Of a stretch of DNA of 46,301 nt, positions 3,860 to 18,553 are shown piece after piece. The DNA is taken from positions 1-46,301 of the IMG/VR virus record IMGVR_UViG_3300032093_000233; one strand, given 5' to 3'. The notes under the pieces are model-generated. The model did no database searches, was not told the DNA's origin, and saw nothing but the letters and a program-made list of their open reading frames with translations. Every line of letters starts with the position of its first letter. The stretch's first letter is position 1. A program made the position numbers and the translations under genes. The DNA is from a virus.

Positions 3860-6208
3860 ATGGCAACTATATTCGTATCGCCTGGTGTTTACACAAGAGA
3901 ACAAGATTTCTCAGTTTTCGCATCAAGAGTAGGTTTAACTAAATTAGGACTTGTAGGTTTAACTGAAAAAGGTCCAGCTTTTGAACCAATCAAAGTAAGA
4001 AGTACAGATGAATTTCTTTTTAGATTTGGTGGAACAAATACTGAATTACAACTTCCTTATGTGGCAAATGCCTTTTTATCACAATCAAATGAATTAACTG
4101 TAACTAGAGTTCTTGGTAAAGAAGGTTTCGTTGATTCTAACGCTTGGCTAATTAAAGCTGAAGGTTCTGGCGATAAGAATGGGGCTGTAATTGCAGTACT
4201 AAGAAGTAAATCACCAGATGAAGGAACAAGCTTTTATGCTAACAATGAAACTGACATTCAAATAGGTGTAGTAACTGCTGGAGCTCCTTTGTCTAATTTT
4301 GTTTTAAGTGCAAGTACTGGTTCTTATTTCTCTGCTTATACTTTGAATGTTACATTAGATGAAAGCAAAGAAAGTTATATAGTAAATGTTTTAGGTAAAA
4401 ACCCTAAGAAACTAGACGGAGATTATGGTATATATGTTGAATCTATATATCCTCACTTCTTGAGAGAAGCTGTTTCTAGAGGAGAAATTACTGGAATTAC
4501 TGCTCAATTAGTTTATTCTAACGGTGACACATCATTTACAGAATATGCTAAAGATACAGAATATACAAATCCTTCAACACCTTGGATTGTTTCTAATGTT
4601 GTTGGTGGACAAGTAAGAGATTTGTTTAAGTTTCAATCAATTTCTGATGGTAATTCTGCCAACAGAGAAATAAAAATATCAATTACAAATATTGATACTA
4701 TAACAAAAACTTTCGATGTATTAATTAGAGATTTTAACGATACTGATAGTTCTTCTTTCCAAACTGCACTTGAAAGATTTAGAGGCGTGTCAATGGACCC
4801 AACTCAAAGAAATTATATTGCAAGAGTAATTGGTACAACTGATGAAGAATATCCAAGACAATCTTTGTTTGTAACTATTGACATGGCTGAAGGGCATCCT
4901 TCAAATGTTGTTCCTGCTGGTTTTAAAGGATATTCTCAAAGACAGGCTGGATTAAGTGGTGAGACTGCTGCTCCATTCTATTATAAGACTAGTTATTTAT
5001 CTGGAGATTCTGTAAATAAAGTTTTCTTAGGAATTTCTGAATTAGCATATACAGGCTTTACTTCAAATCAAGTTAATTACGCAAATACAATAAATACAGT
5101 AGAGGCTGACATGTTTAAGTATGTTGGTGGACTTGCTAGTGGAATCACAACAATAGATGGTTTCCACCTTGAATCTACTGCTCCTGTTGGCTATATAAAA
5201 GGTGATTATAATGCACTTAGTGGTTATACTAAAGCTGAAAGAAAATTCACTTTAGCTCCTGCAGGTGGTTTTGATGGATGGAATAAGTTTAGAACTCCAA
5301 CTTTTACAGTTAATTCAAGAGATAATTCAAATAGAGAAGCATTTAAAGAAGCTGTTGACATTTATGTAAACCCTGAAGAAGTTGACATTAACTTATTTGC
5401 AACTCCTGGTATAAACTATTCAGAAAATGAGGAAATAGTTAAATATGCACTTGGAATAATAGAAGATAGAGCAGATACTCTTTACATCATTGATTCTCCA
5501 AGGCTCACTACTGACCAAGCAAAAGGAACTCCTGAAGAAGCAGTATTGAATATGCAAGATACAGGAATAGATTCTAGTTATGCAGCAACATATTGGCCTT
5601 GGGTTCAAATTGAAGACCAAACAAGTGGCAAATTTGTTTATATTGCTCCAACAGCAGAAGTTGTTAAATCAATTGCTTTAACTGATAATGTAGCATTCCC
5701 TTGGTTTGCGCCTGCAGGTATAAACAGAGGTACTGCTTCTGACATTGTTAGAAAAGCAGATATTAAGTTAAGTCAAGCACAAAGAGATACGTTATACGAA
5801 GGAAGAATTAATCCAATTGCAACATTTGTTCAAAACGGAGTTGTAATATATGGTCAAAAAACTCTTCAAGTTAGACAGTCTGCTCTTGATAGAATTAATG
5901 TTAGAAGATTACTGTTACAAATTAGAAGAATTGTTGCAGCTACTTCTCAGACATTATTGTTCGAACAAAACGACCAAACTTTAAGAGACCAGTTCTTATC
6001 TAAAGTTGAACCATTGTTGTTACAAATACAAAACCAAAGAGGTTTAAGTGGATTTAGAGTTGTAATGGATGAGTCTAATAACCCTGCAGAAGTTGTTGAC
6101 AGAAATACATTAGTAGGTAAGATTCAATTGAAACCAACTAGAACTGCTGAATTTATAGACCTTACGTTCCAAGTACTTCCTACTGGTGCTAGGTTTGAGG
6201 ATTTTTAA
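3860..6208 (+). CDS. Contractile tail sheath protein, gp18-like
   Basis: A 782-residue protein. The N-terminus has the sheath hallmark SPGVYTREQD (residues ~7-16), followed by GLTEKGPAFEP and VTRVLG. The conserved C-terminal sheath domain starts near residue 640: YEGRINPIATF, then VRRLLLQIRR, and a final strand FIDLTFQVLPTG. Sheath subunits form the contractile outer cylinder of myovirus tails; the terminal arms link neighbouring subunits. It is longer than T4 gp18 (659), the extra length lying in the variable outward-facing middle. A strong terminator follows 23 nt after the stop, so sheath and tube levels are controlled separately. Confidence 0.96.
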   Translation: MATIFVSPGVYTREQDFSVFASRVGLTKLGLVGLTEKGPAFEPIKVRSTDEFLFRFGGTNTELQLPYVANAFLSQSNELTVTRVLGKEGFVDSNAWLIKAEGSGDKNGAVIAVLRSKSPDEGTSFYANNETDIQIGVVTAGAPLSNFVLSASTGSYFSAYTLNVTLDESKESYIVNVLGKNPKKLDGDYGIYVESIYPHFLREAVSRGEITGITAQLVYSNGDTSFTEYAKDTEYTNPSTPWIVSNVVGGQVRDLFKFQSISDGNSANREIKISITNIDTITKTFDVLIRDFNDTDSSSFQTALERFRGVSMDPTQRNYIARVIGTTDEEYPRQSLFVTIDMAEGHPSNVVPAGFKGYSQRQAGLSGETAAPFYYKTSYLSGDSVNKVFLGISELAYTGFTSNQVNYANTINTVEADMFKYVGGLASGITTIDGFHLESTAPVGYIKGDYNALSGYTKAERKFTLAPAGGFDGWNKFRTPTFTVNSRDNSNREAFKEAVDIYVNPEEVDINLFATPGINYSENEEIVKYALGIIEDRADTLYIIDSPRLTTDQAKGTPEEAVLNMQDTGIDSSYAATYWPWVQIEDQTSGKFVYIAPTAEVVKSIALTDNVAFPWFAPAGINRGTASDIVRKADIKLSQAQRDTLYEGRINPIATFVQNGVVIYGQKTLQVRQSALDRINVRRLLLQIRRIVAATSQTLLFEQNDQTLRDQFLSKVEPLLLQIQNQRGLSGFRVVMDESNNPAEVVDRNTLVGKIQLKPTRTAEFIDLTFQVLPTGARFEDF

Positions 6209-6259: not shown

Positions 6260-6317
6260 ATTAAAGATTTATTTTTTAAAAAAAATAAAAAAAACAATAA
6301 AAATTTTTTTTGTTTCA

Positions 6318-6326
6318 TATTTATAA
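6318..6326 (+). promoter_or_regulatory. Candidate late promoter for the tube gene
   Basis: TATTTATAA, 33 nt before the ATG at 6360. It lies between the sheath terminator and the tube gene, so a promoter is expected exactly here. This is one of the best-supported instances of the element. Confidence 0.65.
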
Positions 6327-6359
6327 TAGAACATAAGAAACAATTAAAAAAAAATAGAG

Positions 6360-6848
6360 ATGGCTGTAATGTTTAGACCAGTTCCAGTAGAACAGGAACC
6401 AAAAAGAAAAAATAGATTCGTACTTGAATTCCCTTCTGAATTAGGTATTGAATCATTCAATGTACAAACTTCTGGAAAACCTACAATAGAAATCGGTAGT
6501 ACTGAAATCCAATATATGAATACTAGCACATTCGTTGCAGGAAGATATAAGTGGAGCACAATTGATATTGAATTTATTGATGTAATAGGACCTTCTACTA
6601 CTCAAAAGGTTATGGAGTGGGTTAGACTTCATGCAGAATCTGCAACTGGTAGAATGGGTTATGCTGTTGGTTACAAAAAGAATTTAGTACTTAAGGCTTT
6701 AGACCCAGTTGGTGTTGAAGTTGAAAAGTGGACTTTAGTTGGATGCTTTATAACTAACGCTTCATTTGATAGTTATGATTATGGAGCAGATGATGTTTCT
6801 AGAGTAAAAATTACAGTACAGCCAGATAGATGTTTACTTAACGCATAA
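6360..6848 (+). CDS. Tail tube protein, gp19-like
   Basis: A 162-residue protein, the usual size for T4-type tube subunits (T4 gp19 is 163). It has the expected pattern: NRFVLEFPSEL near the start, a central KWSTIDIEFIDVIGPST, the helix KVMEWVRLHAE, and a final strand set VGCFITNASFDSYDYG ending VKITVQPDRC. Tube hexamers stack into the rigid inner tail channel. It has its own promoter-like element and is followed by a strong terminator, as expected for a highly expressed single-gene unit directly after the sheath gene. Confidence 0.95.
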   Translation: MAVMFRPVPVEQEPKRKNRFVLEFPSELGIESFNVQTSGKPTIEIGSTEIQYMNTSTFVAGRYKWSTIDIEFIDVIGPSTTQKVMEWVRLHAESATGRMGYAVGYKKNLVLKALDPVGVEVEKWTLVGCFITNASFDSYDYGADDVSRVKITVQPDRCLLNA

Positions 6849-6870
6849 AATAATAATAAATATACAAAAA

Positions 6871-7672: not shown

Positions 7673-8227
7673 GTGTCTGGACAGTATTTTTATAAGATAA
7701 ATGATAATTTTTTACCAATTAGCGGTGGCACCGTTACTGGTGATAGCTACTTTAATGCTAGTTTATCTGCTAATACTTTTTACTCTGGTTCTACAAATCT
7801 TGAAGATATATTTTTAACTAGCACAGATATTTCTGGAACAACATTAACTGAAGGTAGTAACATTAATTTAGTACAAAATGGATTAAATTATAAAGTTTCA
7901 GTTCAAGATTCTCCCAGCTTTAATAATGTAAGTTTTTCAGGCGAAGCTTTTGGAGGAAATATATATGCAGATACAATAACTGGTGAAACTTATTATGTAA
8001 ACAATAAAATAGAACCATTAAATGATAATTCGGTTGACATTGGAAGTTCTTCTAAAAGATTTAGAAATATAAACACTGTCAGTGGAGCATCAACATTTTG
8101 GACTGCATCAACTGAGGTTTATACACAAAATTTAAATCTTGGAAATGATTTACTTGGCAATTCAAGAATTATTACAGCAAATAATTCAGTTATTCAAGAT
8201 GACACATTGTTTGGAGGAACATATTAA
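7673..8227 (+). CDS. Short fibre-type protein with the shared module
   Basis: A 184-residue protein starting with GTG (7673), 10 nt after the preceding stop. Near residue 34 it has TFYSGSTNLEDIF, a copy of the module recurring in the next fibre genes. Further on, DNSVDIGSSSKRFRNI is a motif common in phage fibre shafts. It ends in LFGGTY, and the next fibre protein ends in LDGGTY, an ending also seen in other T4-type structural proteins. It is probably a short fibre or the base of a longer one. The gene ends with TAA and is followed by a late-promoter-like element. Confidence 0.65.
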   Translation: MSGQYFYKINDNFLPISGGTVTGDSYFNASLSANTFYSGSTNLEDIFLTSTDISGTTLTEGSNINLVQNGLNYKVSVQDSPSFNNVSFSGEAFGGNIYADTITGETYYVNNKIEPLNDNSVDIGSSSKRFRNINTVSGASTFWTASTEVYTQNLNLGNDLLGNSRIITANNSVIQDDTLFGGTY

Positions 8228-8249
8228 ATTCAAATAAAAAAAAAATATA

Positions 8250-8258
8250 TATTTATTA
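8250..8258 (+). promoter_or_regulatory. Candidate late promoter for fibre gene
   Basis: TATTTATTA, 34 nt before the ATG at 8293, in a 65-nt gap with an A-rich leader. Confidence 0.55.
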
Positions 8259-8292
8259 ATAGTGATAAAAAATAAAAAATAAACAATAAAAA

Positions 8293-9954
8293 ATGGCAAC
8301 TAGAAGCACTACTCATGTATTAAAGAACTCGGATATAGTAAATAGACCGTTACCATCAGTCCTTATAAAAGGTGAACCTATTGTAAATACTGCAGATGGT
8401 ATTGTTTTTTTCTCTGGTTTTACAACTTCAACATCTGAATGGACTGCAGCAGGAACTGGTTCTACAGCAAACTTTTTTGAAGTAGGTTCAAATCTTTATG
8501 ATTTAAGATTAAGAAATCAAATAATCGAATATCAAGGTCAAAATGGTGGAGCATTAGTTGGTAAGTTCTTAAGTGGTACAACAAGTGGATTTGTTTTAGG
8601 TAATATTTCGGAAATACAAGGAGTTACAACAAGAGTTCAGCCTGGAGTAAATATATATACTGGAGGAACTGCTGATAACCCAACAGTTAATCTTACAGCA
8701 TCTCCTTCAATTGATAACCTTACTTTTTCAGGTACTGCAACTGGTGGAAATGTTTTTGCAACAAACGTAAGTGGTGGAACTATTTATTCTGGTTCAACAA
8801 ACTTATATGATATATTTGTTGACTCTGTAAATGCTGGTTCAAACACTACAATAGGAGGAACGGCTTCTAATCCAATAGTAAATTTAGTTGCATCACCTTC
8901 ATTTAATAATATCACTTATTCAGGAGTTTCAACTGGTGGAAGTTCAATAGCGACAAATGTATCTGCAACAACAGCATTTTACTCAGCAGGAACGTCTCTT
9001 GAGACTATAATATATAACATTGCCAATTCTACAGAAAGTATTACAAGTGTACAGCCTGGAACAAATATAACAACTGGAGGTACTGCTACAAATCCAATTA
9101 TAAATCTTACAGCATCACCTTCAGTTAACAATCTTACTTTTTCAGGTACTGCAACTGGTGGTAATATTTTTGCAACAAACGTAAGTGGTGGAACTATTTA
9201 TTCTGGTTCAACAAACTTATATGACATATTTGTTGACTCTGTAAATGCTGGTTCAAATATTACAATAGGAGGAACGGCTTCTAATCCAATAGTTAACGTT
9301 TCTTCTTCGCCTACATTCTCTGGACTTGTATCTGCTACAGGATTTACAGATTCAAGTTTAACTCAAGGAAGAGTTGTTTATGTTGGAACAAGTGGTAGAC
9401 TTGTTGATGAATCTGGATTTGAATACAATGATTCAACAAACTTATTAACAGTTGGAAATATAAATGTAACAAATGCTTCTGGAACAACTGCAACAATTGG
9501 ACAAGGAGGTTTAGTTATTGGTAGTGGAGGCTCAATATCAACTCCAGGAATAGGAAATTTAGTTGTTCATGGTGATTTAACTGTTTTCGGTACGGCTACT
9601 ACAGTTGCTACAAGTGAGCTTTACGTTGAAGACCCTCAAATTACATTAAATTATAATCCTACAGGTAGTAGCATTGTAACATCAGTAGCTTCTGGTATAA
9701 GAATTCAAGATGGTAGTGGATTGGTTGCATCTTCAGCAGTAACAAACACTGACGTTTATTTGACTGTTGCTCAAATGAATACATTCACTGGTGGTGATGC
9801 TTCTGAATATACTGGTTCTACTGGATATGTAAATAGAGCTTTCTTGACACAGTTAAATGATATAGTTATAAGAAATACTAATTTTAATAATGGTGCCCCA
9901 GATGGCGTTAGAGTTTTAGCTGAGTTTGATGTTTTAGACGGAGGAACTTATTAA
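8293..9954 (+). CDS. Tail fibre protein with duplicated shared module
   Basis: A 553-residue fibre-type protein. The N-terminus (VNTADGIVFFSGF) fits the attachment domain of many phage fibres. Residues ~140-335 contain two near-identical copies of a 138-codon block built from TASPS, TFSGTATGGN, SGGTIYSGSTNLYDIF and GGTASNPIVN. At about residue 425, HGDLTVFGTATTV followed by ELYVEDPQITLN is a recurrent fibre motif. The C-terminus ends in FDVLDGGTY. It is probably trimeric, mostly beta, and part of the adhesion apparatus. A strong terminator follows. Confidence 0.8.
   Translation: MATRSTTHVLKNSDIVNRPLPSVLIKGEPIVNTADGIVFFSGFTTSTSEWTAAGTGSTANFFEVGSNLYDLRLRNQIIEYQGQNGGALVGKFLSGTTSGFVLGNISEIQGVTTRVQPGVNIYTGGTADNPTVNLTASPSIDNLTFSGTATGGNVFATNVSGGTIYSGSTNLYDIFVDSVNAGSNTTIGGTASNPIVNLVASPSFNNITYSGVSTGGSSIATNVSATTAFYSAGTSLETIIYNIANSTESITSVQPGTNITTGGTATNPIINLTASPSVNNLTFSGTATGGNIFATNVSGGTIYSGSTNLYDIFVDSVNAGSNITIGGTASNPIVNVSSSPTFSGLVSATGFTDSSLTQGRVVYVGTSGRLVDESGFEYNDSTNLLTVGNINVTNASGTTATIGQGGLVIGSGGSISTPGIGNLVVHGDLTVFGTATTVATSELYVEDPQITLNYNPTGSSIVTSVASGIRIQDGSGLVASSAVTNTDVYLTVAQMNTFTGGDASEYTGSTGYVNRAFLTQLNDIVIRNTNFNNGAPDGVRVLAEFDVLDGGTY
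8720..8878 (+). repeat. Direct repeat, copy A, inside fibre gene
   Basis: This 159-bp stretch recurs at 9134-9292 with only a few substitutions and the same reading frame (offset 414 bp, 138 codons). Confidence 0.85.
9134..9292 (+). repeat. Direct repeat, copy B, inside fibre gene
   Basis: Near-identical to 8720-8878. Related but more diverged copies occur in the 1875-residue fibre gene downstream. Confidence 0.85.
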
Positions 9955-9973
9955 TATATTTAAATTTTATTTT

Positions 9974-10004
9974 AAAAAAAGGACGAAAATACGTCCTTTT
10001 TTTT
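9974..10004 (+). terminator. Rho-independent terminator after fibre gene
   Basis: GGACG (9981-9985) pairs with CGTCC (9992-9996) around AAAATA. Flanking A and T runs extend the stem, and a T run reaches 10004. Confidence 0.88.
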
Positions 10005-10067
10005 ATTAAATCATAAATAATGTTATAAAAAGACTAATAAGATTATTTACATTTTATTATTTTATAA

Positions 10068-10093
10068 TATTTATCAAATAGGACTATATAGTC
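10068..10093 (+). promoter_or_regulatory. Late-promoter-like element and adjoining palindrome
   Basis: TATTTATCA at 10068-10076 is followed by the perfect 12-bp palindrome GACTATATAGTC (10082-10093). They lie in the 172-nt gap between a terminator and the ATG at 10127. The palindrome sits where a transcript start or an operator would be. Its role is inferred. Confidence 0.35.
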
Positions 10094-10126
10094 TTTTATA
10101 TAAACAAATTATTATAAGTCATAAAT

Positions 10127-11644
10127 ATGACAAATAGAAATACTACATTCCTAGTAAAAAGGTCAAATGTACCTGGAAAGATACCGTCTCCTGGCGACTT
10201 AAAGCTTGGAGAATTGGCTTTAAATACAGCTGATGCAATATTATATGCATCTGGAACTACTGCAAACGATATTTTACCAATAGGATGGGATAGAATCAAT
10301 AGAACTGGAGATACAGTTAATGGTGATTTTGTCTTTAATGGTAGTATAGATGTCAATTCTTTATCTGCATCTACAATCTATTCTGGTTCTACGAACCTTT
10401 ATGACATATTTTTAACTTCTGGAGACTTATCTGGAACATCGGTATCAGCTGGCTCAAATATTATAGTTCAACAATCAGGTAATGACTATAAGGTTTCAGT
10501 TTCTGGCTCACCAATCTTTAATCAACTTACAACTTCGGGTCTTACAACTATAAATTCAAATTTTATAGTAACAGGAAATACAAATCTTGAGGCAATGTCT
10601 GCGTCAACAGTTTATGTTGAAGACTATATTCAATTTAATACTGGATATACACCAGGTGTTAGTACGGAAGGTAAGATGTATTGGGATGAACCAAATGGAA
10701 CCATAAGTCTTGGTATGCATGGCTCTCAAGTATCGCAACAAATTGGTTTAGAATATTATTACTACGTAAAAAATCAAAGTGGAGCAACAATTGAAAATGG
10801 TCGTGTTGTAAGAGCAGCTGGAACGTTGGGGGCTTCTGGTAGAATTTTAGGTAAGTATATGATTGCAAATGGTACTATACCTGCTAAGTATACACTAGGT
10901 GTTGCCACTGAAGACATAATAAATGGAGATGATGGTTATGTAACTGAATTTGGATTAGTTAGAGGGATTGATACAACAGGTACTCCTTATGGTGAAACAT
11001 GGAGTGAAGGTGATGTATTGTGGGTGTCTCCGACATTTGAGGGTGGATTAACCAATGTTGAGCCAAATTTCCCTAACTTGAAGATAGAAATGGCTATAGT
11101 AATTAGAGCTAATGCCAATGGTTCTATTTTCGTAAGACCACACAGATACCCGTCTACAAATGAAATTCAGGACATAATTTCTTCAGGTAGAACAAATAAT
11201 TCCATTCTTCAGTATAATGCTTCGATTAGTGGATATACAAATACGACAACTCCGACTCTGACTTCAGTTAGCGCAACAACAATATCAGGAGGAACAATAT
11301 ACTCAGGCTCAACTGATTTATCGGCTATTTTTCAGCCGATAAACAAAAGTCCTTATAATACATTTATTTTAACAGCAGGAACAAGTTATAGTTTTTCGGG
11401 CACAGTAAATACTTTGTCGATAAATAAAACAGCTGGGTCAGCCACGCAAGTAAATTTACCTTCAAATCCTAATACAAATGACTTCTTTGTAGTTAAAGAT
11501 AGAGCAGGTGTTTCATTTACGTATCCGATAACGATGTCAGGAGGAACAAAGACAATTGATGGAAACACATCATATGTTATAAAACTTAGAAATAATCCAT
11601 CACTCACCTTCCTATATGACGGTGAAGAATATATAGTAATTTAA
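10127..11644 (+). CDS. Tail fibre protein, multi-domain
   Basis: A 505-residue fibre-type protein. Residues 23-36 (GDLKLGELALNTAD) are a classic phage fibre N-terminal motif. TIYSGSTNLYDIF near residue 84 and TIYSGSTDLSAIF near residue 393 are copies of the shared module. From residue 181, EGKMYWDEPNG, then VYVKN-like YYYVKNQSG, FGLVRGIDTTGT and EGDVLWVSP form a domain common in phage structural proteins. The last ~90 residues (from FILTAGTSYSFSG) look like a separate beta-sandwich tip, a plausible receptor-binding head. It follows a terminator and so probably has its own promoter. Confidence 0.8.
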   Translation: MTNRNTTFLVKRSNVPGKIPSPGDLKLGELALNTADAILYASGTTANDILPIGWDRINRTGDTVNGDFVFNGSIDVNSLSASTIYSGSTNLYDIFLTSGDLSGTSVSAGSNIIVQQSGNDYKVSVSGSPIFNQLTTSGLTTINSNFIVTGNTNLEAMSASTVYVEDYIQFNTGYTPGVSTEGKMYWDEPNGTISLGMHGSQVSQQIGLEYYYYVKNQSGATIENGRVVRAAGTLGASGRILGKYMIANGTIPAKYTLGVATEDIINGDDGYVTEFGLVRGIDTTGTPYGETWSEGDVLWVSPTFEGGLTNVEPNFPNLKIEMAIVIRANANGSIFVRPHRYPSTNEIQDIISSGRTNNSILQYNASISGYTNTTTPTLTSVSATTISGGTIYSGSTDLSAIFQPINKSPYNTFILTAGTSYSFSGTVNTLSINKTAGSATQVNLPSNPNTNDFFVVKDRAGVSFTYPITMSGGTKTIDGNTSYVIKLRNNPSLTFLYDGEEYIVI

Positions 11645-11662
11645 TTTGAAATATTTATTAAT

Positions 11663-12916
11663 ATGAGCTTTACACTTAATAATGAAATAAGTTTTTCTGA
11701 CAGTCCAAATATAGATGCATTTGGTAGGTTGAGAACTAGTAATCCACAAGCTTTATTTTCATTCAATCAAACGCTTACAAGTGGTGCTACTATTATGGAA
11801 ACATATACAAGTGGTGGTACTGTAACTTTTAATTCAGGTGCATCTGAAACCCAATTCAACGTAACTGCAAATGGGCATAGAGTACTAAGGGAACAACATG
11901 GTTATAATATTTATCAGCCAGGCAAGTCTCAGTTAATATTTTTAACTGGAGTCTTTGGAACGCCGACAGCAAACGTTACAAAGAGAATGGGATATTACAA
12001 TGACGAAAATGGTTTATTCTTTTCTCAAACTGGTGGTACTAACACTTTTGGCGTTGTCTTAAGGTCTGATACAAGCGGTTCGATAGTTGATACATTCATA
12101 CCACAAAGTCAATGGAATTTAGACACATTAGATACTGGAAACACTTTAAACCCAAGCGGAATTCATTTGGATGTCACTAAGACAAATATTTTCTTAATAA
12201 ATTTTCAATGGCTAGGAGTTGGTAGAGTTATTTTTGGTTTAGATATAGATGGAGTTATAATTCCTGTACATCAAATTTTAAATGCCAACAATAAAACTTC
12301 GGTTTATATGAGAACCCCAAATCTACCAGTTAGATATGAAGTAACTTCTCAAGGCGGAACTGATAATACATTTAAGCAAATATGCTCATCTGTTATTTCA
12401 GAGGGAGGACAAGAACAGTTTGGTTTTACAACAGCAGTTTCTAATGGATTAAATACAAGAACATTTGCTTCTGAACAAGCAGTTATATCTGTTAGGTTGT
12501 CTCAACTTTTTAAAGGTAGAACAAATAGAATTTCAATCATACCATTATCTATTGATTTGTTAACAACTACAACAACTGTAACGGCAGAATGGAAGCTGAT
12601 ATTACAAAGGGGTTTTGCTGGAGAAAATAATCTAGGTGGCTCTCCAACATGGAATGCTTGGACTGCGACGACTGAAGGAACTCTGTTAGAATATTCAACA
12701 AATGGTACAATTGTAACTGGAGGAACTGTTTTAGATAGTGGCTATGTATTCACAACAAATCAAGTTGGGTCTAAATCTACCAATTCAATAGTTAGGAGTA
12801 AAGATTTCTTATCATTAGACTTTTCAGGAACAACTTCAGATTGGTTACATTTAGTTGTAAGTCCAAGTGTAAGCTCATCTTGGTCAGGTAAAATTTCATT
12901 ATTAGCACAATATTAA
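11663..12916 (+). CDS. Conserved virion structural protein of the fibre region
   Basis: A 417-residue protein of a type found in fibre regions of large phages. Residues ~18-28 (DAFGRLRTSNP) are followed by YQPGKSQLIF, KRMGYYNDENGLFF, VVLRSDTSGS, FLINFQWLGVGRV and MRTPNLPVRYE. The conserved order of these motifs is characteristic, although the exact role is unknown to me; a beta-rich adhesin or fibre component is likely. It starts 18 nt after the preceding stop. A TATTTATTA ends only 2 nt before the ATG, too close for a normal leader. It is followed after 9 nt by the large fibre gene. Confidence 0.7.
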   Translation: MSFTLNNEISFSDSPNIDAFGRLRTSNPQALFSFNQTLTSGATIMETYTSGGTVTFNSGASETQFNVTANGHRVLREQHGYNIYQPGKSQLIFLTGVFGTPTANVTKRMGYYNDENGLFFSQTGGTNTFGVVLRSDTSGSIVDTFIPQSQWNLDTLDTGNTLNPSGIHLDVTKTNIFLINFQWLGVGRVIFGLDIDGVIIPVHQILNANNKTSVYMRTPNLPVRYEVTSQGGTDNTFKQICSSVISEGGQEQFGFTTAVSNGLNTRTFASEQAVISVRLSQLFKGRTNRISIIPLSIDLLTTTTTVTAEWKLILQRGFAGENNLGGSPTWNAWTATTEGTLLEYSTNGTIVTGGTVLDSGYVFTTNQVGSKSTNSIVRSKDFLSLDFSGTTSDWLHLVVSPSVSSSWSGKISLLAQY

Positions 12917-12925
12917 TAAACAAAA

Positions 12926-15900
12926 ATGGCTTTTAATTATTCATACAATAAACAAGTAGTTCCGAGTGATTTATTTAATTCGGTAGTTGATGGATTGTCA
13001 ATTACACCAATGTATATTGACTATAATGCTCAAACATTTAATATAGATATTTGGTTTGAACAAGCATTAACTGCACCAGAAGAATCTATCTTAAATGATA
13101 TTGTTGCAAATATAATATTTGTAGACAAATCTAATTATGCAACATTTGAAAATGTAACCTCTACAGAGGGTGACATTACTTCGTTAACAGCAAATACTAT
13201 TGAAAGTAGTTTTTCGAACATTGGAGATTTAAGTGCGTCCACGATTTATTCGGGCAGCACTAACTTATATGATATTTTCCTAACATCAAGTGATGGAAAT
13301 GATATAACAAGAGTTCAGCCAGGGACAAATATAACAACAGGTGGAACTGCAAATAATCCTACAATAAATCTTGTAGATTCTCCATCAGTAAATAATATTG
13401 CATTTTCAGGAACAGCAACAGGAGGTAATATTTTTGCAACTCAATTAAGTGGTGGAACTATTTATTCGGGAAGTACAAATTTATATTCGATATTTGCACC
13501 AATTGGTTCTTCGGAGGGTGTACAAAATGTTTTGCCTGGCTCAAATATAACAACAGGAGGAACGGCTACAAGCCCAACAATAAATCTTTCAGAATCACCA
13601 TCAGTCAACAATCTTACTTTTTCAGGAACAGCAACGGGAGGTAATGCGTTTGCAACTCAATTAAGTGGTGGAACTATTTATTCTGGTTCAACAAATTTAT
13701 ATGATATATTTGTTGATTCAGTAAAATCGGGTTCAAACGTTACGATAGGCGGAACAAGTTCTAATCCGATAGTCAACATTACTGCATCACCTTCATTTAA
13801 TAATTTGACATTATCAGGAACAGCAACAGGCGGTAATGTGTTTGCAACTCAATTAAGTGGTGGAACTATTTATTCAGGAAGCACTGATTTATATAATATT
13901 TTTCTAGGATTAAATGATGATTATGTTAAAAATGTTGTAAATGTTGGAAAAGGCGGGAATGTAGAATTTTCATCAATAAAAGATGCCGTCGATTCAATTA
14001 CCGCAGCAACAACATCAAATCCATACGTGGTTAAGGTTGGTCCAGGCATGTACATTGAAGATACTATTACAATGAAAACAGGTATCTCGATTGTAGCAAA
14101 TTCACTTGGAAGTGTTTTAGTTATACCGACAGTAAATACAAACACTATATTTGTTGGTGCAGATGCGTCATCAATTGTTAACTTAGTTTTGACAAACGCT
14201 AGCGGTTCAGGAGGAAAAGCTGTTTACCATAATGGAACTGGCGGAACTGGGTTTTTAATTAAAGATTGTAATTTTAACGATAATGAAACTCAAGTTCATT
14301 GTTATGCCACTTCGGCTTCTTCAATAGTCTATATAGATAGGTGTAGTGTAACTGGAAATAACGCTTATGGGTTTAAGATAGAGAATACTGGCACAACTTT
14401 ATCTCAGGTGATATTCACTAATGGTACATACAAAGATACAACATTGCCTGTAACAACCGATTTCTTTACAGTATCAGGAACTGGTTCAACATGTACTATT
14501 ACAAATTCTACATTTAGAATTGCTCAATCAACAGGTTCAACATTTTTAAAAGCTCAAGATAGTGCTGACGTTAGAATCATTGGTTCAGTTATTAGAGGTT
14601 TTGAGAATGGATTATATTCTTTATCAGGAAATGGTGCACCAAACATCATTTGTGATTCCTTAGGAATATCAGAATGTACAAATGATATTTTAATAGAGCA
14701 TCCTGGAACGACAGGTTATTTTAATGGTATCTCAGAGTTTTCTAAAATCTCGATAAATAATGACGCTCCATTTTATTTAACAAATAATGATACTAAAATT
14801 ATTAAAGTCGCCAAAAAAGGAGAAGACTTTACATCTATTGCAGATGCTGTTAATTTTATTACAGACGCATCAAGTACTAATAGATATTTAATTAGTGTTG
14901 GGGCTGGAATTTTTTATGAGGATGAAATAGATTTAACAAATAAGCCGTTCATTAGTGTCGTCGGTGCAAGCATTCAATCGACTTTAGTAATTCCAAATAC
15001 AGGTACTCAGCACTTGTTTAAGATGGGTAATAATTGTGAGATTTCATTTATGTCACTTAGTGGCGTCGGCAATGGTTATTCAGCTGTATATGTATATGAC
15101 ATTGGAGATTTTGCACAAGCTCACAAAATCTCTATTATAGATTGTGATACAAATGTTCACGTAGAGTCTGTAACTCAAGATACAATATTCTATGGGGAAT
15201 ATATGGATTTTAATGGTAATTATAGTTATGGAGCAAAAGCAGTTGCAAACAATAATTATCAAGCTTTCATTAATTTAGAAAACTACTATATTTTCCCTTC
15301 TGGTGACGGAGTTCAAGTTGGTAACTTTGCGACAGGAAGTGGTGCAACTTTCAATATCCTATCTTCTTCTATGGCAGGAATGGGAAACACAGGAGAAACT
15401 GCTATTCATATAGAGGATGGAGCTTCATTAGATTGTACTTCTGTTGATATAGACTCATTCTATTATGGAATTAGAAATGCGAATGTAGGAAGTGATTGCT
15501 CATTTGACTTAGATGCTATTAGTATTACAAATTCTGGTCTTTATGATATTTCTATTGAAAATTCAACAACTACTGGAACTATACTTGGTTCAGCATCACA
15601 TACTCAAATTTTTAACGCTAGTAATTCTGTTTCTTGGCTTATATTAGATAGTACTGATGGAGAGTTAGATATCACCAATCAATTATCTGTAACATTTACA
15701 GATGGTACACATACAGACTTATCAACAATATTGATAAAGGGTGCTACTATGGGGATTATCGAAGGTGGTGTTATAACAGAAGTGAGTGGATTAACTATTA
15801 ATATAAGCACAGGTTTTGGGTATTTAGAAAAAGCTCCTAATACTAAGATATTGAAAAGAATTGATTGGGACTCTCAGGATTTGGTCTTACCAAGCAATTC

Positions 15901-18553
15901 TAATCTTTACATTTATTTCAATGAAAACGGAGTTTTATCTACATCTGGTTCTAGACCGAATTCGATAAATAATATAATTTTAGGCAGAGTTGTAACAAAT
16001 TCATCTATTGAGATTATTGATTTGTCTCCATTGAATGCAGAACATACTTCAAATAGATATTCTGATTTATTTACAGAAGCTATCGGACCTATATATGCAG
16101 ATGGTTCTATCGTTACAGAAAACACGACGCCTTTCCACCTAGATGCATCATCGGGTAAATATTACTATTCAACAAACGAGTTTAAGCCTACAGGAGGTAC
16201 TGATATAACTTTTGTTCAATATAACAGAACTGGATTAACTGGTTGGACATCTTCAGCAACTACTGTTGTTACGAATTCACTATATGATAATAATGGTTCG
16301 CTATCTGCCTTATCATCATCTTATTATACAAAACACACATTTTATTTGATTGGAGATAGTATTTATGAGCAATATTTATTAGTTTTAGGTCAAAATCAAT
16401 ATGCAACACTTCTTGAAACAGAGGATGCGTTATTACCTACTCCACCAACCTATTTTTCAGATTCATTAGTGCAGATTGCGAATATATATGTTCAAGAGGG
16501 TGCTACTGGAATTACGCAAGTTGAAGATATTAGACCTATTATCGGATTTAAAGCGGGAGGCGTAAATGCTTCCTCAACACATGGTAACTTACTTGGTCTA
16601 TCTGCTGACGACCATACTCAATACTTGCTTGTTGATGGTGGTAGAGCTATGTCTGGAAATCTAGATATGGACTCAAACAACATAGTGAATGCAGGTACAA
16701 TAAATGGTGTTTCAGCTCAAACACACTCTACAAGACACTTACCTAATGGAGCAGACCCTTTAAATACAGCAGCGCCTATAAGTATTTCAGATTCAAACTC
16801 AGAAGGTATTGCAAATTCATTTGCTAGGTCAGACCACCAACATGCTCATGGAGTTCATAGTGGCGGAACAACCCACTCAGTTGCAGATTCTACAACGGCA
16901 GGATTTATGTCTTCTACTGACAAGAACTACTTGGATTCATTACCAAGTCAGTTGAATACTAAATCTAGCTTGTCAGGAGCTACATTTACAGGGGCAGTTA
17001 ATGCAACATCACTAAGCGCTACAACACTAAGTGGCGGAACTATACTTTCGGGCTCAACTAATCTTTATTCAATATTTGCGCCTATTGGCACTATTGGGAG
17101 TGGTGGTGTGCAAAGTGTGCGACCAGGCTCGAATATAACGACTGGTGGAACTGCAGAAAGTCCGATAATAAATATTGTAGATTCACCTTCATTTAATGGT
17201 TTAAATGCTTCTGGGAATACAATTTTAAACGCAACAACAGCAATAACTCAATATGTAGAAAGCTATTTAAATATAGGAAATGCGAACCCTGAAACTACAG
17301 CAACATTGCATGTGACTTCTTTATCTGCTCAAAATCAAACTACTGATTTTGAACAATTCGGGTTTGGTTCTAATTTTAGGATTAGAAGAACGAATGGTAG
17401 CCCTTCTTCTAAGTCAACATTGTTGAGTGGTGACGTAATAGGTAATTTAAATTTTGCTGGTTATGATGGGGTTTCAAATTCAGCCTCTCAGTCACGCATA
17501 AGAGTTTTAACAACTGAAGATTGGTCTCCTACAAATCGTGGGACAAAAATGGAGTTTTCAGTAACTCCAATTGGTTCTATAGATAATACAACTTGTTTAA
17601 TTTTAAATTCTGATTGTAGTGCTGTTTTTTCAGATGGTTTATCTGCTAAGACAATTTCTGCAACAACAATATTTTCAGGCTCAACAAATTTATATTCAAT
17701 ATTTGCTCCTATTGGTACTATTGGTGGAGGTGGCGTTAAGAGTGTTCGACCAGGTTCAAATATAACAACAGGAGGGACTGCGGAGAACCCAATAATAAAT
17801 CTTGTAGATTCACCTTCGGTTAATAATTTGAATATTTCTGGGCTAACGACTTCAACAGATGGAGCAACATTTGTATCCCTTTCAGGAACAAATATATTTT
17901 CAGGAAGTACAAATTTAAATGTTTATTTTGATAGCATTAATGCAAGGCTTGAAACAGAGGCTAATTTATCTGGCGCAACATTTACAGGAACAGTTAATGC
18001 TCCAACATTAAGTGCGACTACATTCAGCGCCTCAAGTGCTACAGTTTTAAGTTCATTAAGATTCCCTGTATCACCTGTTTCTGGGTATATTTTAACATCA
18101 GATGCAAATGGTAATGCAGCTTGGCAGGCAAGTCCTGTTGGAACAGGTGCAACGAAGGTAGATTTACAAGGTGTGTCAACTGGTTCAACCGCAACAGCGA
18201 CATCGGCATTTGTAGACGTTCCAGGCATGACGTTTACAACAAAAAACCTTGGTAGTTCGGCAACAACATATGTAGCAAGATTTAATGCTCAAATAAGTAA
18301 TAATAACAATGCAGGTTCTTCTACATTTGCTATATTAAGAAATAATGTTGTACAACCAAGCTCAGTAAGGACAGTATCAAATTCTGGTGCTGCCATGACC
18401 AACTCAAACAGAAGTATATCAACATCTGCAACTATTACAGGTGTCACAAATGGTGATGTAATTAAAGTGCAGTTTAGTGCAGCAACTGGTACTGTAACTG
18501 TTACAAACAGAGGTTTTGATATTTTTGGAATTTTAAATGTTAATTTAGTTTAA
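12926..18553 (+). CDS. Giant tail fibre/spike with two beta-helix domains
   Basis: An 1875-residue adhesin, the largest gene here. Residues 1-85 are an N-terminal module shared with the next gene. About 100-330 hold four copies of the SGGTIYSGSTNLYDIF module. Residues ~333-600 (VGKGGNVEFSSIKDAV, then KVGPGMYIEDT) and ~622-905 (VAKKGEDFTSIADAV, then SVGAGIFYEDE) are two pectin-lyase-type right-handed beta-helices, the fold of polysaccharide-cutting tailspikes. Around 1217, HGNLLGLSADDHTQYLLVDGG and, around 1301, ARSDHQHAHG are standard fibre motifs (the first is 21 residues long including the last G). Three more module copies follow, then a domain with GDVIGNLNFAGYDG, and a final ~130-residue beta-sandwich (from about 1735) that may be the receptor-binding tip. 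Enzymatic activity is possible but no catalytic residues can be assigned by eye. Confidence 0.85.
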   Translation: MAFNYSYNKQVVPSDLFNSVVDGLSITPMYIDYNAQTFNIDIWFEQALTAPEESILNDIVANIIFVDKSNYATFENVTSTEGDITSLTANTIESSFSNIGDLSASTIYSGSTNLYDIFLTSSDGNDITRVQPGTNITTGGTANNPTINLVDSPSVNNIAFSGTATGGNIFATQLSGGTIYSGSTNLYSIFAPIGSSEGVQNVLPGSNITTGGTATSPTINLSESPSVNNLTFSGTATGGNAFATQLSGGTIYSGSTNLYDIFVDSVKSGSNVTIGGTSSNPIVNITASPSFNNLTLSGTATGGNVFATQLSGGTIYSGSTDLYNIFLGLNDDYVKNVVNVGKGGNVEFSSIKDAVDSITAATTSNPYVVKVGPGMYIEDTITMKTGISIVANSLGSVLVIPTVNTNTIFVGADASSIVNLVLTNASGSGGKAVYHNGTGGTGFLIKDCNFNDNETQVHCYATSASSIVYIDRCSVTGNNAYGFKIENTGTTLSQVIFTNGTYKDTTLPVTTDFFTVSGTGSTCTITNSTFRIAQSTGSTFLKAQDSADVRIIGSVIRGFENGLYSLSGNGAPNIICDSLGISECTNDILIEHPGTTGYFNGISEFSKISINNDAPFYLTNNDTKIIKVAKKGEDFTSIADAVNFITDASSTNRYLISVGAGIFYEDEIDLTNKPFISVVGASIQSTLVIPNTGTQHLFKMGNNCEISFMSLSGVGNGYSAVYVYDIGDFAQAHKISIIDCDTNVHVESVTQDTIFYGEYMDFNGNYSYGAKAVANNNYQAFINLENYYIFPSGDGVQVGNFATGSGATFNILSSSMAGMGNTGETAIHIEDGASLDCTSVDIDSFYYGIRNANVGSDCSFDLDAISITNSGLYDISIENSTTTGTILGSASHTQIFNASNSVSWLILDSTDGELDITNQLSVTFTDGTHTDLSTILIKGATMGIIEGGVITEVSGLTINISTGFGYLEKAPNTKILKRIDWDSQDLVLPSNSNLYIYFNENGVLSTSGSRPNSINNIILGRVVTNSSIEIIDLSPLNAEHTSNRYSDLFTEAIGPIYADGSIVTENTTPFHLDASSGKYYYSTNEFKPTGGTDITFVQYNRTGLTGWTSSATTVVTNSLYDNNGSLSALSSSYYTKHTFYLIGDSIYEQYLLVLGQNQYATLLETEDALLPTPPTYFSDSLVQIANIYVQEGATGITQVEDIRPIIGFKAGGVNASSTHGNLLGLSADDHTQYLLVDGGRAMSGNLDMDSNNIVNAGTINGVSAQTHSTRHLPNGADPLNTAAPISISDSNSEGIANSFARSDHQHAHGVHSGGTTHSVADSTTAGFMSSTDKNYLDSLPSQLNTKSSLSGATFTGAVNATSLSATTLSGGTILSGSTNLYSIFAPIGTIGSGGVQSVRPGSNITTGGTAESPIINIVDSPSFNGLNASGNTILNATTAITQYVESYLNIGNANPETTATLHVTSLSAQNQTTDFEQFGFGSNFRIRRTNGSPSSKSTLLSGDVIGNLNFAGYDGVSNSASQSRIRVLTTEDWSPTNRGTKMEFSVTPIGSIDNTTCLILNSDCSAVFSDGLSAKTISATTIFSGSTNLYSIFAPIGTIGGGGVKSVRPGSNITTGGTAENPIINLVDSPSVNNLNISGLTTSTDGATFVSLSGTNIFSGSTNLNVYFDSINARLETEANLSGATFTGTVNAPTLSATTFSASSATVLSSLRFPVSPVSGYILTSDANGNAAWQASPVGTGATKVDLQGVSTGSTATATSAFVDVPGMTFTTKNLGSSATTYVARFNAQISNNNNAGSSTFAILRNNVVQPSSVRTVSNSGAAMTNSNRSISTSATITGVTNGDVIKVQFSAATGTVTVTNRGFDIFGILNVNLV
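13313..13906 (+). repeat. Tandem shared-module repeats in giant fibre gene
   Basis: Units starting near 13403, 13619 and 13811 repeat TTTTCAGGAACAGCAAC-type DNA (the third as TTATCAGG) followed by CAATTAAGTGGTGGAACT, with periods of 216 and 192 bp. The reading frame is kept. Further copies lie near 17026 and 17645. Confidence 0.8.

What the first reader, a model, noticed from the sequence alone, without database searches (positions are those of the whole stretch)
7772..17925. One fibre module shared by four adhesion genes
Copies of (S)GGTIYSGSTNLYDIF, usually with GGTASNPIVN and TFSGTATGGN, occur in the genes at 7673, 8293, 10127 and 12926, about twelve times. Near-identical DNA copies (8720-8878 and 9134-9292) keep frame, so recombination could add, remove or swap blocks between fibres. 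This looks like a modular system for changing fibre length or receptor range without a reverse transcriptase.
Basis: partly seen in the sequence, partly recalled or inferred. Interest (0 to 1): 0.7.

Follow-up and report, generated by a model that had tools for sequence, protein, structure and literature searches.

The report
Shared repeat module in phage tail-fibres
Four tail-fibre genes of an uncultured T4-like phage are built partly from the same 60-74 amino-acid repeat, and comparison with relatives shows that copies are gained, lost, homogenised and used as joints for swapping fibre parts over evolutionary time, a well-known style of tail-fibre evolution here seen with a repeat family that the databases searched do not list.

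Summary
The core motif occurs exactly 12 times in the four named genes (shuffled expectation 0.0015). The full repeat is a 60-74 aa unit; complete units lie only in the genes at 8293 and 12926, while 7673 and 10127 carry the core plus a variant half. The block 8719-8880/9133-9294 is 96% identical, with 48 of 52 synonymous-capable codons identical against 24 expected, so it is a recent copy. Other copies are old: the 17-aa core is identical in 10127 and 12926 but only 4 of 17 codons match.

Relatives refute "identical copy number everywhere". The 8293 family keeps its N-cap (97-113 aa) and C-cap (154-195 aa) while the shaft varies from 84 to 706 aa. The window has exactly one 64-aa unit more than L013/L014. 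L017 carries a perfect 216-bp tandem duplication. Near-identical contigs (99.99% and 99.2%) show no change, so turnover is slow in these samples.

Best reading: ordinary modular tail-fibre shaft evolution by homologous recombination among repeats, like T4 gp37 duplications and T-even adhesin swapping, not a dedicated diversity generator. Receptor-range effects are untested. Side finding: the gap between the two middle fibre genes is a recurrent GIY-YIG homing-endonuclease site in relatives.

The parts
7673..8227 (+). Small fibre gene (184 aa): core motif at 7763-7813, variant half-unit about 7847-7999, C-terminal part shared with more than 100 ORFs of related loci
   Evidence: weak PHROG tail fiber match
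8293..8598 (+). N-cap of fibre gene 8293 (aa 1-102), constant in relatives
8629..8817 (+). Repeat unit 1 of gene 8293
   Evidence: profile hit
8719..8880 (+). Recently copied block, 96.3% identical to 9133-9294; 48/52 synonymous-capable codons identical vs 24.1 expected
8818..9009 (+). Repeat unit 2 (variant with SATTAFYSAGTSLETIIYNIA)
9043..9231 (+). Repeat unit 3, near-copy of unit 1
9133..9294 (+). Partner of the recently copied block
9232..9339 (+). Terminal half-unit before the C-cap
9367..9954 (+). C-cap of gene 8293 (ELYVEDPQITLNYNPTG ... LDGGTY), constant in relatives
9955..10126 (+). Intergenic slot with an intrinsic-terminator-like hairpin; empty here, holds a GIY-YIG gene in many relatives
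10127..11644 (+). Fibre gene (505 aa): N-cap 10127-10351, core motifs 10361-10411 and 11282-11332, middle domain about 10607-11221, own C-terminal domain about 11330-11641
11663..12916 (+). Virion structural protein without the module
   Evidence: phrog_1645 E=1.8e-79
12926..13210 (+). N-terminal domain of the large fibre gene, shared only with L042/L069 among the loci
13229..13903 (+). N-terminal array: lone core 13229-13279, units 13307-13495, 13520-13711, 13712-13903
13904..15805 (+). Two right-handed beta-helix (pectin-lyase-like) domains, predicted
   Evidence: AlphaFold2 pLDDT 75.6, Foldseek to pectin methylesterases, alginate lyases, phage tailspikes; Pfam Pectinesterase below cut-off
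15803..16645 (+). Middle domain, 56-67% identical in other phages in other gene contexts
17027..17230 (+). C-terminal array, first part: core 17027-17077 and half-unit
17231..17623 (+). Extra 131-aa domain between two module copies, absent from L042
17654..17929 (+). C-terminal array, second part: core 17654-17704, half-unit, core 17879-17929
18023..18550 (+). C-terminal domain of the large fibre gene

Best explanation
The repeat is a structural shaft or joint unit of trimeric tail fibres. Copies of this one family sit in four fibre genes of a T4-like myovirus, between constant attachment caps and variable distal domains. Because copies share DNA stretches, ordinary homologous recombination during phage replication and mixed infection occasionally duplicates or deletes units, homogenises copies within a gene and less often between genes, and lets domains be joined or exchanged at unit boundaries. 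Selection keeps the in-frame products. Shown: the anatomy, copy-number differences among relatives, recent copying in some pairs, constant caps with variable shaft, domains in different gene contexts. Inferred: trimeric shaft structure, the recombination route, and any effect on fibre length in the virion or on host choice.
For: N-cap 97-113 aa (CV 0.04), shaft 84-706 aa (CV 0.46), C-cap 154-195 aa (CV 0.07) in 29 non-identical relatives. Window vs L013/L014: one extra 64-aa unit; L024 is shorter again, at 83-86% DNA identity among L013, L014 and L024. L017 holds two identical copies at spacing 216 (236-nt exact tract) with a sharp edge; L052 a 131-nt tract at spacing 246. Nearest DNA neighbour of a unit lies in the same genome for 40 of 84 units vs 3.8 in shuffles. 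Codon test: z>3 in 21% of same-gene pairs, 5% of cross-gene pairs in one genome, 1% of pairs between genomes. Cross-gene examples: window 12926 unit 2 with 8293 (z 4.1 and 3.9), L042 (5.2), L049 (4.1). Domains change context: L020, L035 and L094 fuse the 10127-type N-cap to the beta-helix/middle domains that the window keeps in 12926.
Against: No change among near-identical contigs. Several copies are old: 10127 and 12926 cores identical in 17 residues but in only 4 of 17 codons. Swap points at joints may reflect selection for intact domains rather than homology-driven recombination. The structure of the repeat could not be modelled (g8293 pLDDT 40) and no solved structure matches its profile. 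No infection data.
Confidence: 0.8

Rival explanations
1. A dedicated diversification system: the repeats exist to generate fibre variants at high rate within a phage population, like a contingency locus or a reverse-transcriptase-free analogue of a diversity-generating retroelement.
For: Shared repeats in four fibre genes, copy-number differences among relatives, a perfect tandem duplication in L017, and a contig (L015) that ends at window base 8810, the last base of the 58-nt exact repeat, as expected if assemblers meet ambiguity there.
Against: Identical copies in contigs at 99.99% and 99.2% identity. The repeats are diverged (mostly 65-85% DNA identity), which does not favour frequent slippage. 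No recombinase or reverse transcriptase tied to the locus was found.
Confidence: 0.07
2. Pure structural conservation: the copies are ancient paralogous shaft repeats kept alike by protein selection, with no recent exchange.
For: Several copies are alike in protein but not in codons; most cross-gene pairs in one genome show no codon excess (mean z 0.92, 5% above 3).
Against: The 8719/9133 block has z=7.0, and L017, L052, L016 and L042 show the same; unit number differs between relatives.
Confidence: 0.08
3. Homing-endonuclease-driven exchange: GIY-YIG endonucleases in the intergenic slot cut fibre loci lacking them, and repair copies flanking fibre segments between phages, so the module turnover is partly a by-product of homing.
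For: GIY-YIG genes lie within 1.2 kb downstream of the 8293-type gene in 9 of 47 distinct relatives; in 20 chosen contigs 7 of the 19 above-cut-off hits lie in this one slot (with some selection bias).
Against: The window and its 69.9 kb near-twin contig have none; relatives without it also vary in shaft length; no cut site is known.
Confidence: 0.05

Closest known systems
T4 gp37 long-tail-fibre adhesin: duplications of a small domain widen host range (Tetart et al. 1996, J Mol Biol 258:726; seen here only as a citation)
   Same: Short domain inside a fibre gene is duplicated in frame, changing fibre architecture
   Different: Here units sit in the shaft of several genes, sequence is unrelated at the level searched, and host range is untested
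[quoted passage not shown] 1998, J Mol Biol 282:543; gp38 with conserved glycine motifs flanking hypervariable segments)
   Same: Conserved repeated motifs flank variable receptor parts and serve as exchange points
   Different: Motif is a 17-aa shaft joint shared by four genes, not gp38 glycine motifs; exchange mapped only by comparison of contigs
Domain shuffling in phage receptor-binding proteins (Smug et al. 2023, PMC10684548)
   Same: Tail fibre and tailspike genes share recently exchanged fragments
   Different: Here a repeat family inside one genome, with unit copy-number change
Pectin-lyase-like phage tailspikes (e.g. HK620, Sf6, CBA120 TSP3)
   Same: Right-handed beta-helix fold predicted for the centre of gene 12926
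   Different: Two tandem beta-helices inside a 1,875-aa fibre flanked by repeat arrays; no catalytic test
YadA-type head repeats (L018 shaft)
   Same: Repeat stack used as the fibre shaft in a relative with the same caps
   Different: Unrelated repeat that replaces the present module; below Pfam cut-off

Membership tests
T4-like modular tail-fibre genes | Located in the tail gene cluster of a contractile-tail phage | tested here: met
   Tail sheath 3860-6208 (phrog_23, E=7.5e-77) and tail tube 6360-6848 (phrog_4542) directly upstream
T4-like modular tail-fibre genes | Constant attachment part with variable distal or shaft part among relatives | tested here: met
T4-like modular tail-fibre genes | In-frame repeat copy-number change among relatives | tested here: met
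T4-like modular tail-fibre genes | Sequence homology to T4 gp34/gp36/gp37/gp38 or gp12 | tested here: not met
   No PHROG or Pfam family for 8293, 10127, 12926 above cut-off; no phage record matches 8293. It works like them; not filed as a homologue
T4-like modular tail-fibre genes | Copy number or swaps change host range | not testable with these tools
   needs isolates
Diversity-generating retroelement | Reverse transcriptase near a variable target gene | tested here: not met
   PF00078 absent from window, L009 contig (69.9 kb) and L042 contig (95.4 kb); all fragments
Contingency tandem-repeat locus | Copy-number variants among near-identical genomes | tested here: not met
   win/L009/L010/L015 at 99.99% and L024/L025 at 99.2% show no change; few genomes
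Pectin-lyase-like tailspike (part of 12926) | Right-handed beta-helix fold | tested here: met
   (prediction, weak full-length TM because of two domains)
Pectin-lyase-like tailspike (part of 12926) | Polysaccharide-degrading activity or binding | not testable with these tools
   none

The most novel reading that the evidence does not exclude
One interchangeable repeat family acts as a universal joint across all fibre genes of a phage lineage, with cross-gene gene conversion, and homing endonucleases that repeatedly enter the gap between two fibre genes help drive exchange of fibre blocks between phages.
Probability: 0.1. Interest if true: 0.6.

Novelty: new member of a known kind. Interest (0 to 1): 0.4.

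Why it matters
It gives a clear, datable example in uncultured T4-like phages of how fibre shafts grow, shrink and swap ends while the caps stay fixed. It also separates recently copied blocks from merely conserved ones, a distinction that repeated motifs alone do not give. The module marks fibre genes that PHROGs and Pfam miss. Short-read assemblies sometimes break at these repeats, so natural fibre variation in metagenomes may be undercounted, which long reads could test.

Tried and rejected
AlphaFold2 of the whole 8293 protein with 17 relatives gave pLDDT 40 and was not used, as can happen for an intertwined trimer folded as one chain. The module profile found nothing among solved structures. 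The 131-aa extra domain at 17231-17623 was scanned for elsewhere to test the cassette idea; only the near-identical contig came back, so its source is unknown. L146/L147 (99.87% identical) differ by 253- and 148-nt indels in a related fibre gene, but the indels break the frame and no direct repeat was found at the coordinates tested, so an assembly error or a dead gene is as likely as a fibre variant. A diversity-generating retroelement was rejected for lack of a reverse transcriptase. The raw nearest-neighbour excess was not taken as proof on its own because shared codon usage could cause it; the codon test is the control, and it reduces the cross-gene signal to a few pairs. The module alignment could not be used on genome contigs; a two-unit window sequence found one weak relative in a metagenome-assembled bacterial contig.

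Full report
What is there. The window is a 46,301-bp virus record from a T4-like contractile-tail phage: tail sheath, tail tube, terminase, portal and DNA polymerase and baseplate hub genes. Behind the tube gene lie the fibre genes 7673, 8293, 10127 and 12926. The core motif occurs 12 times in them and nowhere else in six frames, against 0.0015 expected in shuffled proteins. A profile of the whole unit finds a 60-74 aa repeat made of a half with SPSxNNLTFSGTATGGN, the core LSGGTIYSGSTNLYDIF, and a half with PGSNITTGGTAxNPIINL. Full units are in 8293 and 12926; 7673 and 10127 have the core with another half-unit. Profile hits cover 20-46% of the four proteins.

Which copies are recent. The block 8719-8880/9133-9294 differs at 6 of 162 nt. 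Among 52 codons for the same degenerate amino acid, 48 are identical against 24.1 expected from this record's codon use (z=7.0). By contrast the 17-aa core is identical in 10127 and 12926 with only 4 of 17 codons alike (z=-2.1). So part of the pattern is recent copying and part is old conservation. Over 84 units of 25 loci, 21% of same-gene pairs, 5% of cross-gene pairs in one genome and 1% of pairs from different genomes exceed z=3.

Relatives. Scans of viral contigs gave three near-identical contigs (L009, L010, L015; one mismatch each over 19,951, 10,939 and 8,810 nt) with the same copies where they overlap, and many diverged relatives. For the 8293 family the N-cap and C-cap are nearly constant in length while the shaft runs from 84 to 706 aa. 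Some relatives use other repeats between similar caps, such as the YadA-head-like SHAEG repeats of L018. The window is longer than L013 and L014 by exactly one unit, LTFSG...SPSFNN, and that unit is the recently copied block. L024 is shorter by a further unit, and L011 has another domain placed between module halves. L013, L014, L024 and L011 are 82-88% identical to each other, so unit number changes within such groups, while the 99.2% pair L024/L025 shows no change. L017 carries two perfectly identical copies at spacing 216.

Exchange between genes. Window 12926 unit 2 resembles the 8293 units more than any unit of another genome (83% vs 72% DNA identity) with a codon excess (z 4.1 and 3.9). 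L042 and L051 come from one metagenome and overlap by 51 exact bases at their contig ends, so they are probably neighbouring pieces of one genome (inference). They share the variant GRFTSLSATTLSGGTILSGGTNLY in several genes, with a 150-nt stretch 89% identical between two of them. Domain contexts also change: in L020, L035 and L094 the 10127-type N-cap is fused to the beta-helix and middle domains that here belong to 12926. In 12926 an extra 131-aa domain sits between two module copies that are 79% identical over 191 nt, and it is absent from L042.

What the genes are. The centre of 12926 is predicted as two right-handed beta-helices (pLDDT 75.6), resembling pectin methylesterases, alginate lyases and phage tailspikes, so a receptor-polysaccharide role is plausible for that gene. 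For 7673, 8293 and 10127 the name fibre rests on position, repeat architecture and the N-terminal GE...NTADG pattern (from general knowledge), not on a family match: PHROGs and Pfam give nothing above cut-off, apart from a weak PHROG tail-fibre match for 7673, and no annotated phage record matches 8293.

Mechanism. The most economical account is homologous recombination among repeats within and between fibre genes, with selection for in-frame products. Direction is not proven for each case: the window unit may have been gained, or an older four-unit state may have been homogenised here and lost in L013; L016 has a similar alternating arrangement. Swap points at joints can also reflect selection against broken domains.

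Comparison with the known. This works like T4 gp37 domain duplication and T-even adhesin swapping at conserved motifs (cited), and fits the general domain shuffling of receptor-binding proteins (PMC10684548). It is not shown to be homologous to those genes. The repeat family is absent from the family libraries and solved structures searched. I class it as a new member of a known kind.

A side finding deserves its own look: the 172-bp gap after gene 8293 is empty here apart from a terminator-like hairpin, but holds a GIY-YIG homing endonuclease gene in at least 9 of 47 distinct relatives. A Pfam search over 20 chosen contigs puts 7 of its 19 above-cut-off hits in that slot. Homing there could promote fibre exchange, but nothing tested links the two.

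Noticed in passing
window 9955-10126 and the equivalent gap in L012/L013, L020, L056, L087, L092, L097, L098, L109, L117, L120, L125, L152: The gap between the 8293-type and 10127-type fibre genes is a recurrent insertion site for GIY-YIG homing endonuclease genes in relatives (9 of 47 distinct relatives by motif; 7 of 19 Pfam hits in 20 chosen contigs).
   Followed up: partly
window 6264-6868 versus L011, L013, L014, L021, L024, L026: The tail tube gene lies directly after the sheath in the window, but in these relatives the matching sequence is inverted and several kb downstream of the fibre genes.
   Followed up: no
window 8753-8810; L015 contig end: The L015 contig stops at the base corresponding to the end of the 58-nt exact repeat; L042, L051, L054, L055 and L056 also have contig ends in or near module arrays, suggesting assembly breaks at these repeats.
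   Followed up: partly
window 21708-23375 and 23415-24065: Two neighbouring ORFs both match terminase large subunit families, which may mean a split or partly duplicated gene.
   Followed up: no
L018 7613-10597: A relative with the same fibre caps has a 706-aa shaft with 19 SHAEG-type YadA-head-like repeats.
   Followed up: partly
window 7673-8227 and 8293-9954: Both proteins end in GGTY, and orthologues end in GG[SNTV][YFW]; the shared C-terminal tail may be an assembly signal.
   Followed up: no
L157 4869-5558: The module occurs in a contig labelled as a deltaproteobacterial metagenome-assembled genome; it may be a phage or a mis-binned contig.
   Followed up: no
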